From contig CP029803.1 of the NCBI GenBank assembly GCA_003226295.1, positions 1,865,001 to 1,929,000 on the forward strand: 64,000 nt of DNA, in the 5' to 3' direction. Of this stretch, positions 4,347 through 41,874 are shown in pieces. How positions within the stretch are numbered: the first letter of the stretch is position 1; each line of letters begins with the position of its first letter. The position numbers and the translations under genes are program-made. The notes beneath the pieces were generated by a model, which was not told the DNA's origin, did no database searches, and saw nothing but the letters and a program-made list of their open reading frames with translations. The DNA is from Candidatus Moanabacter tarae (GTDB taxonomy: Bacteria; Verrucomicrobiota; Verrucomicrobiia; Opitutales; UBA2987).

Positions 4347-5156
4347 TCAGGAAGGGCTTAATCCCTCTTCAAAAAGCGACGGAAAGTGACGATGGGGATC
4401 CGCCGGTTCCCGAAAGAGGATTTTTTGGCGCGGCGACAAACAAACGTTTTTTGGAGGTCGTACTCTATTGGCAGACCATGCTATTTCTGACACACAATAC
4501 TTGTAAAGCAGTGCCCTTCGATCATGTTTGGCTGTCCAAGCCGCAGTCCCGTGGGTAAGCGCCTCACTGAAAACAGTAACAGAACCGGCCGGCGCTTCAG
4601 GTATCACAAAACAAGCAGATTCCTCTGGAGCTTCCGCAATCTTATTGGGTAATTTGAAGTTACTCTTGTGACTACCCGCAATGCAACAAAATCCGCCAGA
4701 GCTGGGTCCCGATGAGGCTAGATTCCAGCTCACTACTAAGAACCCGTTAAGACTTCGGCTATCATTAAGGTGAAAGTACTCCCCATCCCGAGCACCAGAG
4801 TTCGGGGCAGTAGCTCCGTAATCAGCATGCAGTTTCCCCCGAGACATACCTTTTCGCATGTGAAGTCCGTAAATGCGATCAAGGCGAAAGCAATCTCCCA
4901 ACCGGAAGCGAAGAATAGGCATTATCTTAGGGTGATCAAGTAGGTTGCAAAATGGGGTTCCCCATTCCAGGAATCCTGGACGCTCTGGATGCGCCCCCGC
5001 CGCTGACCCGAATCTTCTCTGCTCCTCCGGGTCCGGAAGTTCCTGATGGTCAATCAGATCGTGCAGAACTCTAAGCTCCTCCTCGCTTAATACTTCCTCG
5101 ATCACAAGGTAACCCTGAAGGTCGAACAAATATTGGTCTATCTCATAGTCTTCCAT
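4347..5156 (-). CDS. PhyH-family Fe(II)/2-oxoglutarate dioxygenase
   Basis: A 269-residue member of the phytanoyl-CoA dioxygenase family, non-haem iron oxygenases that use 2-oxoglutarate and O2. The facial triad is intact: H110-A-D112 in KLHADYG, and distal H202 in EALTHGTAAW, with R213/R214 as the likely 2-oxoglutarate clamp. The GSHKSN turn near 161-166 is the usual PhyH landmark. The N-terminal FDLQGYLVIEEVLSEEEL segment is typical and resembles that of the PhyH protein at 40.1 kb. The substrate is unknown; bacterial members act on ectoine, phosphonates and many specialised metabolites. It stands alone between long intergenic regions. Confidence 0.85.
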   Translation of the reverse strand: MEDYEIDQYLFDLQGYLVIEEVLSEEELRVLHDLIDHQELPDPEEQRRFGSAAGAHPERPGFLEWGTPFCNLLDHPKIMPILRFRLGDCFRLDRIYGLHMRKGMSRGKLHADYGATAPNSGARDGEYFHLNDSRSLNGFLVVSWNLASSGPSSGGFCCIAGSHKSNFKLPNKIAEAPEESACFVIPEAPAGSVTVFSEALTHGTAAWTAKHDRRALLYKYCVSEIAWSANRVRPPKNVCLSPRQKILFREPADPHRHFPSLFEEGLSPS

Positions 5157-40083: not shown

Positions 40084-40914
40084 TCAAGGGAGAAGCGGCG
40101 CAATAGGCTGGATGATGCTACGGCGGGTCGGATTAAGACGCTGAAGCAACTCTGAGGATGGCTGATAACCAAACCGGGTGTTACTCCACCGGGGACCATA
40201 TCGATAGACAACAACACGTCGTTCTCCAGAATTTTTTCGCTCGGCCGAACCGTGGGCAAGAGCGTCAACGAAAAGTATAGCATCGCCGGCTTTTATATGG
40301 ACCTCCACAGCCCCGATTGCACCATCCGCTGAGGTACCCATGAGATCCTTGTAATCTCCGCGTAAGGTAGGATGGGGAAGATTTGACTTGTGGGAACTGG
40401 GAACAATTAAGGTAGCGCCGTCACCAGGTCCAATATCAGTCAAGGCCAGAAGGATATTTATCATTCCGCAATGGAATTTCCCATCGTGATAACGAAACTG
40501 ACTGCGGATATTGCGACTGGCACCACCTGAATGGAGATTTATAGATTCACCCGGTCCGCGAACGGAAACAAAATTCTCGTCAATAAAGAGACCCTCAGAC
40601 TCTCCCACAAAGTTTCGAACTTTATCGATCCAAACAGGGTGATCGATTAACTCCTCAAAAGGTAGCCCACCTTCAACTACATTCTGCAGGTTCAAACCAC
40701 GTTTGGGATGGTGCATTTGGCAGTGAACACAACCTCGCCATTCGTCCGGTTGAATATCGCGGTAGGCGTCTATCTCCTGGTTAAGACTATCTAAATGGCC
40801 TTGGGTTACTGCTCCAGGCAAGAGAAGGTAACCCTGAAGATCGAACATATAGGTTTCGTCATATTCTCTCACAGACAGAGGATTTATGGCTCGTTTGGGA
40901 GTTCCTGTCGACAT
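40084..40914 (-). CDS. PhyH-family protein with His-X-Gly in place of His-X-Asp
   Basis: A 276-residue PhyH-fold protein, similar in its N-terminal FDLQGYLLLPG and PSSHKSN segments to the one at 4.3 kb. Lining it up by eye with that protein puts H128-S129-G130 (NLHSGGAS) at the iron-binding HxD position, so the carboxylate ligand is missing. Distal H221 (ALAHGSAERK) and R232/R233 remain. In known Fe/2OG halogenases such as SyrB2 and WelO5 the same Asp is Ala or Gly, leaving a site for halide. A changed but non-halogenating or inactive enzyme is equally possible. It is followed downstream by no obvious partner; the PhyH gene at 41.1 kb lies just upstream on the same strand. Confidence 0.8.
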   Translation of the reverse strand: MSTGTPKRAINPLSVREYDETYMFDLQGYLLLPGAVTQGHLDSLNQEIDAYRDIQPDEWRGCVHCQMHHPKRGLNLQNVVEGGLPFEELIDHPVWIDKVRNFVGESEGLFIDENFVSVRGPGESINLHSGGASRNIRSQFRYHDGKFHCGMINILLALTDIGPGDGATLIVPSSHKSNLPHPTLRGDYKDLMGTSADGAIGAVEVHIKAGDAILFVDALAHGSAERKNSGERRVVVYRYGPRWSNTRFGYQPSSELLQRLNPTRRSIIQPIAPLLP

Positions 40915-41055
40915 TCGAATGCCCTTAACTTCTTGTCATAGCCTTGAGTCTTTTTTTCTTTGTTGCTATTCAGCTGAGCGGCTGTGGTACACTCGATCAC
41001 GCTTAGACAATTAGCACCATAGTTTAAAAACCTCGCACATGAATATTATAGGTAA

Positions 41056-41874
41056 TCAACTACTTGATTCTACAGTGTCTGGAATATTTTCCAGAAGCTG
41101 AGTCAGCTGGCGTCGGCGTTCTGGTGGGCAATCCTTCAATAATGGCCCGTCGGAGGTTTCCCCAAAAACCTCTTTTCTAGTGTAACCAGCACCGCGGACA
41201 TTATCCTGAAAGTGCGACAACCCCGAACCCGAATGGTGTTCCGTAAACACTATCGTGAACATGCGTCGTTTTGAGTCTCCCCCCCATGCGCTGTGTTTAG
41301 TGGCGTGATCGAACACGACCAAATCACCGGGCTGCGTTTCCAGCGCAACCGCCGGTACTTCACTACCGTGCAGCCCACCAAACATTTCCTTGTTCCGAAA
41401 GAGTTGGTCATGATGCATTTCCGCAAACGCTTCGCCAGATCGATGGCTTCCAGGAATCACTCGCAACGCACCGGTCTCCCGCGTTACAGTGTCCAAATAG
41501 ATGGCCATCTTGTAGTAACGAATGGGAGGTGGCCATATCGTATCCGAATGCCAGCCAGTATCACCAACATAGTAGTTCCCATCGCTGTTCCAGTATTGAT
41601 AATTCTCCCCCAACAGCCCAGCTGCAATACCGCTGATCCTATCATCATCGAGCAGCGTACATAGGTAGGCACTGTGATTGAGAAAGGGAACCATGCATGA
41701 TCGTTGTCCCCCGTCATGAGTCGCCCCACTACCCCTCTGCATAAGGGTCTCAAAAGCCTCTTCGATGTCGGAAATCTTGTCAGTGAGAAGACCCGGGAAA
41801 GAAAGATACCCATAGACAGCCATGAATTCACGCTGATGAGAAGTTAGTTCGAAGGTTCCCATATCAGTTCTCAA
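41056..41874 (-). CDS. PhyH-family Fe(II)/2-oxoglutarate dioxygenase
   Basis: A 272-residue PhyH oxygenase with an intact triad: H109-S-D111 in TGWHSDTIW and distal H194 in DHATKHSAWGG, with R203/R204 as the 2-oxoglutarate clamp and PGSHRSG (141-147) as the family landmark. Its fold markers differ from those of the two other single-domain PhyH genes in the window, so it is not a simple recent duplicate. Substrate is unknown. It lies upstream of the HxG PhyH gene, 141 bases apart on the same strand, and could be co-transcribed. Confidence 0.85.
   Translation of the reverse strand: MRTDMGTFELTSHQREFMAVYGYLSFPGLLTDKISDIEEAFETLMQRGSGATHDGGQRSCMVPFLNHSAYLCTLLDDDRISGIAAGLLGENYQYWNSDGNYYVGDTGWHSDTIWPPPIRYYKMAIYLDTVTRETGALRVIPGSHRSGEAFAEMHHDQLFRNKEMFGGLHGSEVPAVALETQPGDLVVFDHATKHSAWGGDSKRRMFTIVFTEHHSGSGLSHFQDNVRGAGYTRKEVFGETSDGPLLKDCPPERRRQLTQLLENIPDTVESSS

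What the first reader, a model, noticed from the sequence alone, without database searches (positions are those of the whole stretch)
40084..40914. PhyH-fold protein with a His-X-Gly iron motif like that of Fe/2OG halogenases
Seen: aligned by eye with the PhyH protein at 4.3 kb, which has H110-A-D112, this protein has H128-S-G130, with distal H221 kept. Known: in the Fe(II)/2-oxoglutarate halogenases SyrB2 and WelO5 the HxD Asp is Ala or Gly, opening a halide site. Inference: this may be a halogenase-like or altered-chemistry oxygenase, or a catalytically inactive binding protein. It sits next to an intact PhyH gene, as halogenase/hydroxylase pairs sometimes do.
Basis: partly seen in the sequence, partly recalled or inferred. 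Interest (0 to 1): 0.66.

Follow-up and report, generated by a model that had tools for sequence, protein, structure and literature searches.

The report
HygX-like oxygenase lacking usual iron aspartate

Summary
In detail: H128-S-G130 replaces HxD, and H221 is kept. It is not a lone mutation. In 101 orthologues from at least 10 phyla, H128, H221, R232 and one extra acid, D217, are invariant, and G130 is kept in 100. The nearest solved structure by sequence and fold is HygX (hygromycin B oxygenase), solved with Fe, Ni and 2-oxoglutarate, which also reads HGG. Its members nearly all carry Glu or Asp four residues before the distal His; HxD relatives rarely do. Human AspH, a non-halogenating HxG hydroxylase, has the same arrangement: D721 holds the water that fills the missing carboxylate site. 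SyrB2 and CytC3 halogenases have Ser there.

Best explanation: an active Fe(II)/2-oxoglutarate oxygenase (hydroxylase or oxidative cyclase) with a two-His iron supported by D217, probably through water. Halogenase chemistry is not supported but not excluded. The substrate is unknown. Direct D217–iron contact was not testable because no coordinates were available.

The parts
40084..40914 (-). HygX-like PhyH-family Fe(II)/2OG oxygenase, 276 aa (P0001)
40531..40533 (-). H128, proximal iron His; 101/101 orthologues
40525..40527 (-). G130, in place of the HxD aspartate; 100/101 orthologues (one Ser)
40264..40266 (-). D217, invariant acid at distal His minus 4 (101/101); proposed to hold the iron-bound water, or possibly the iron itself
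40252..40254 (-). H221, distal iron His; 101/101 orthologues
40219..40221 (-). R232, predicted 2OG-binding Arg (distal His +11); 101/101 orthologues
41056..41874 (-). Neighbouring PhyH protein with intact H-S-D motif (P0003), 141 bp away on the same strand; functional link not shown
4347..5156 (-).

Best explanation
It is a working Fe(II)/2-oxoglutarate oxygenase of the HygX-like clade of the PhyH family. Iron is held by H128 and H221 and 2OG is anchored by R232. The site left by the missing HxD aspartate is filled by a water held by D217, four residues before H221, as D721 does in AspH (or, less likely, by D217 itself). The oxo-iron then abstracts hydrogen and hydroxylates or oxidatively cyclises an unknown, probably polar, substrate; it does not transfer halide. 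Shown: fold family, clade, conservation, the -4 acid, its match in position to AspH D721. Inferred: contact of D217 with water or iron, activity, substrate class, absence of halogenation.
For: 101 orthologues: H128, D217, H221, R232 all 101/101, G130 100/101, D144 variable; 77 remain at a 90% identity cut-off. HygX is the top match by sequence (E 7e-19; profile 116 bits against 46 for SyrB2) and by fold (Foldseek E 4e-20, Z 24), solved with Fe, Ni, 2OG and hygromycin B. HygX reads LHGG and LNEALMHG. The HxG/[DE]-4 proteins fall in one set of 27 rows, SH-aLRT 96. AspH: HTG plus D721-S-F-E-H725, water W1 in the carboxylate site held by D721, D721A much less active, no halogenation seen. SyrB2 and CytC3: Ser at -4. 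Chlorinating-enzyme model far below cut-off. AF2 model pLDDT 84.5 puts D217 in the turn between strand 212-216 and the strand with H221.
Against: No coordinates could be read, so the distance from D217 to the metal is not measured. The link between loss of HxD and a -4 acid rests on essentially one event in the tree (proximal trait 3 changes; independent-pairs test has no power), so it is not replicated within PhyH; AspH is the only second case. Some HxD proteins also have a -4 acid (11 of 158). HygX is only about 25% identical and its reaction is inferred from structure. WelO5, BesD and AdaV were not compared at the -4 position.
Confidence: 0.68

Rival explanations
1. Relocated facial triad: D217 (Glu in HygX and most of the clade) binds iron directly, giving a His...[Asp/Glu]-x3-His triad in place of His-x-Asp...His. 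Chemistry is then ordinary hydroxylation.
For: D217 is 101/101 and Glu or Asp in nearly all clade members. It lies in the turn between strand 212-216 and the strand that starts at residue 220 and carries H221, the end of the barrel where the metal sits in this fold (general knowledge). My unchecked memory of the HygX paper abstract is that HygX shows a variation in metal coordination.
Against: At the same spacing AspH D721 is second-sphere, 2.9 A from the water and not an iron ligand. The HygX paper itself was not available.
Confidence: 0.2
2. Fe/2OG halogenase: Gly130 opens a halide site as in SyrB2 and WelO5, and the product is chlorinated or brominated.
For: HxG is the motif used to pick halogenase candidates (PMC11186838). 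Several carriers are from marine samples by their record titles, where halide is plentiful.
Against: Clade with HygX, and far below the chlorinating-enzyme model. Acid instead of Ser at -4. AspH shows HxG plus D-x3-H without halogenation, with W1 thought to block halide binding. No chlorinating-enzyme family match above cut-off in 194 genomes of the phylum, its own included.
Confidence: 0.07
3. Catalytically dead metal- or ligand-binding protein that lost the triad.
For: In human PHYH, D177A and D177G are inactive in vitro (PMC12816917).
Against: Both His, the 2OG Arg and further residues (R119, R238, Y239) are invariant in 101 orthologues, 77 after removing those 90% or more identical. HygX binds Fe and 2OG with the same motif.
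Confidence: 0.05

Closest known systems
HygX, hygromycin B orthosomycin oxygenase (PDB 4xc9, 4xca, 4xcb, 4zpi)
   Same: PhyH fold, HGG in place of HxD, acid (Glu) four residues before the distal His, same clade (support 96); solved with Fe, Ni and 2OG
   Different: About 25% identity; Asp instead of Glu at -4; no hygromycin-like cluster seen around the gene; reaction and substrate of the window protein unknown
Human AspH (aspartate/asparagine beta-hydroxylase, PF05118)
   Same: HxG two-His iron with an Asp exactly four residues before the distal His; 2OG-dependent
   Different: Other Pfam family; acts on EGF-like domains; no PF05118 match for the window protein
SyrB2 / CytC3 aliphatic halogenases (TIGR01762)
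   Same: PhyH-like fold and no HxD Asp; weak profile similarity
   Different: Ser, not Asp/Glu, at distal His -4; 15.7 bits against cut-off 226.3; weaker similarity than HygX
Canonical PhyH oxygenases (human PHYH, EctD)
   Same: PF05721, fold, distal His, 2OG Arg
   Different: They use HxD...H; here the Asp is Gly

Membership tests
PhyH superfamily (PF05721) | Match to the Pfam profile over its cut-off | tested here: met
   61.1 bits against 22, full length
PhyH superfamily (PF05721) | Fold of solved PhyH-family proteins | tested here: met
   AF2 pLDDT 84.5; HygX, TlxI, SptF, FtmOx1 at Z 22-24
Canonical HxD...H 2OG oxygenase | HxD/E...H facial triad | tested here: not met
   H-S-G; G130 in 100/101 orthologues
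HygX-like PhyH clade | Groups with HygX apart from HxD proteins in a tree | tested here: met
   27-row set, SH-aLRT 96, motif columns left out of the tree
HygX-like PhyH clade | HxG plus Glu/Asp at distal His -4 | tested here: met
   H128-S-G130, D217-x3-H221
HygX-like PhyH clade | Oxidative cyclisation at a glycosidic linkage | not testable with these tools
   Needs substrate and assay; gene neighbourhood not conserved
Fe/2OG halogenase | HxG or HxA | tested here: met
   H-S-G
Fe/2OG halogenase | Chlorinating-enzyme family model TIGR01762 over cut-off | tested here: not met
   15.7 against 226.3 bits; covers SyrB2-type enzymes only
Fe/2OG halogenase | No acid near the open iron site (Ser at -4 in SyrB2, CytC3) | tested here: not met
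   D217 invariant against Ser in both; WelO5, BesD, AdaV not compared
Fe/2OG halogenase | Halide bound at iron, halogenated product | not testable with these tools
   Needs structure and assay
AspH (PF05118) | Family profile match | tested here: not met
   No PF05118 match for P0001

The most novel reading that the evidence does not exclude
The clade has moved the iron carboxylate: D217/Glu binds iron directly, giving a His...[Asp/Glu]-x3-His triad different from HxD...H, spread over at least 10 bacterial phyla and open to unusual oxidative reactions.
Probability: 0.2. Interest if true: 0.6.

Novelty: new variant of a known kind. Interest (0 to 1): 0.42.

Why it matters
HxG/A is used in genome mining to pick Fe/2OG halogenases (PMC11186838). 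Here a large, conserved group of HxG PhyH proteins looks like non-halogenating HygX/AspH-type oxygenases, and an acid at distal His -4 is a simple sequence flag that could separate the two. It also gives hundreds of natural relatives (482 in one scan) for asking how 2OG enzymes work without the HxD carboxylate, whose loss inactivates human PHYH.

Tried and rejected
Single-sequence scan of genome contigs found no relative; the alignment scan did. D144 as substitute ligand: rejected, not conserved. D165 and D211 as substitutes: both are conserved, but they lie in turns that are also acidic or Asn in many HxD relatives, so they are not specific to the HxG group. Independent-pairs test of HxD loss against -4 acid: no power. 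HygX paper (PNAS 2015): not held, so its metal ligands could not be checked. Gene neighbourhood for a substrate clue: not conserved; one family that looks like the enolase superfamily lies near 15 of about 60 loci and one that looks like a sulfatase near 13, named by eye only, and the window's own enolase-family gene has close kin at only 2 loci. 16S rRNA to name the organism: none found. The model's coordinates are not handed to scripts.

Full report
Observation. The ORF at 40084-40914 (-) encodes 276 aa. The comparator at 4.3 kb reads H110-A-D112. The gene beside it, 41056-41874, is a PhyH protein with H-S-D. The genome, 2.63 Mb in one contig, has 84 PhyH matches.

Is the HxG real? Yes. Alignment with relatives of 44-53% identity and then with 101 orthologues, 81 of them from loci of 10 named phyla, gives H128 101/101, G130 100/101 (one Ser), H221 101/101, R232 101/101. 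Position 129 is Ser in 92. One further acid is invariant and close in sequence to the distal His: D217, at H221 minus 4.

What is it close to? By sequence the nearest solved protein is HygX (E 7e-19; profile 116 bits, next EctD 76, SyrB2 46, CytC3 42). The AF2 model from 18 sequences has mean pLDDT 84.5 and pTM 0.86. Foldseek ranks HygX chains first (E 4e-20) and VIA-align gives Z 24, although rows within Z 1 are tied (TlxI 23.6). HygX was solved with nickel and 2OG, with hygromycin B, and with iron. A review describes HygX with AviO1 and EvdO1/O2 as non-haem iron, 2OG-dependent oxygenases and its complex as consistent with metal-catalysed hydrogen abstraction (PMC8234114). HygX reads LHGG and LNEALMHG, that is HxG with Glu at distal His -4.

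The signature. Among a diverse sample of PhyH ORFs from this genome and other fetched loci, with the P0001 orthologues counted once, those without an acid at H+2 have Glu/Asp at distal His -4 in 20 of 23; those with HxD/E have it in 11 of 158, only 2 of them Glu (Fisher 6e-16). This p-value ignores kinship. A tree built without the motif columns puts HygX, P0001, the other HxG/[DE] proteins and also P0002, the HAD comparator, in one set of 27 rows (SH-aLRT 96). So it is essentially one ancient switch, kept since; P0002 looks like a secondary regain of the Asp. By locus, 13 of the genome's PhyH genes, P0001 and P0002 included, carry the -4 acid signature.

Mechanism. AspH is a proven 2OG hydroxylase with HxG: iron is held by H679 and H725, water W1 fills the carboxylate site, D721 hydrogen-bonds W1 at 2.9 A, D721A is much less active, and no halogenation was seen (PMC13168262; HXG...H stated, PMC12816917). 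D721 is H725 minus 4, checked on the sequence. SyrB2 and CytC3 have Ser at that place. The simplest reading is that D217 does in P0001 what D721 does in AspH. Direct ligation of iron by D217 remains possible. Human PHYH D177A/G is inactive, so in this family loss of the Asp normally needs compensation (inference).

Halogenase reading. Against it: clade, chlorinating-enzyme model 15.7 against 226.3 bits, no genome of 194 in the phylum over that cut-off, and the invariant acid. It is not excluded without an assay.

Substrate. Gene neighbourhoods are not conserved. PhyH expansions are known from Poribacteria, mostly without function (PMC3909097), and some bacterial PhyH proteins demethylate 2'-O-methylnucleosides (PMC12709175). 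A small polar substrate is a guess.

Limits.

Noticed in passing
whole genome G000 (window is C1:1865001-1929000): 84 PhyH-domain matches in a 2.63 Mb genome, an expansion like that reported for Poribacteria.
   Followed up: partly
4347-5156: P0002 has both HAD and the -4 Glu inside the HxG clade: a likely secondary regain of the Asp, with two candidate carboxylates.
   Followed up: partly
L046:2328-3170: Clade relative in G016 in which the proximal His is Gln in the alignment (TQGGK), with the -4 Glu and distal His kept: possible inactive or altered paralogue.
   Followed up: no
L186 and L194 (one PhyH ORF in each): Two clade members with HGS/HGA and the acid at -5 instead of -4 (MDGAQTHG).
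   Followed up: no
L032:1474-3140 (G016): Tandem duplicate of the P0001 orthologue.
   Followed up: no
L055:3-977: ORF that starts with what looks like the beginning of a sulfatase and runs into a PhyH protein of this clade; could be a fusion or an assembly artefact.
   Followed up: no
L268 (G378) and window 40084-41874: A P0003-like PhyH gene lies beside a P0001 relative in one other genome too, there divergent.
   Followed up: no
whole genome G000: No bacterial 16S rRNA match found although the genome is one contig at 98% completeness; the same search also missed 5 of 14 control genomes.
   Followed up: no
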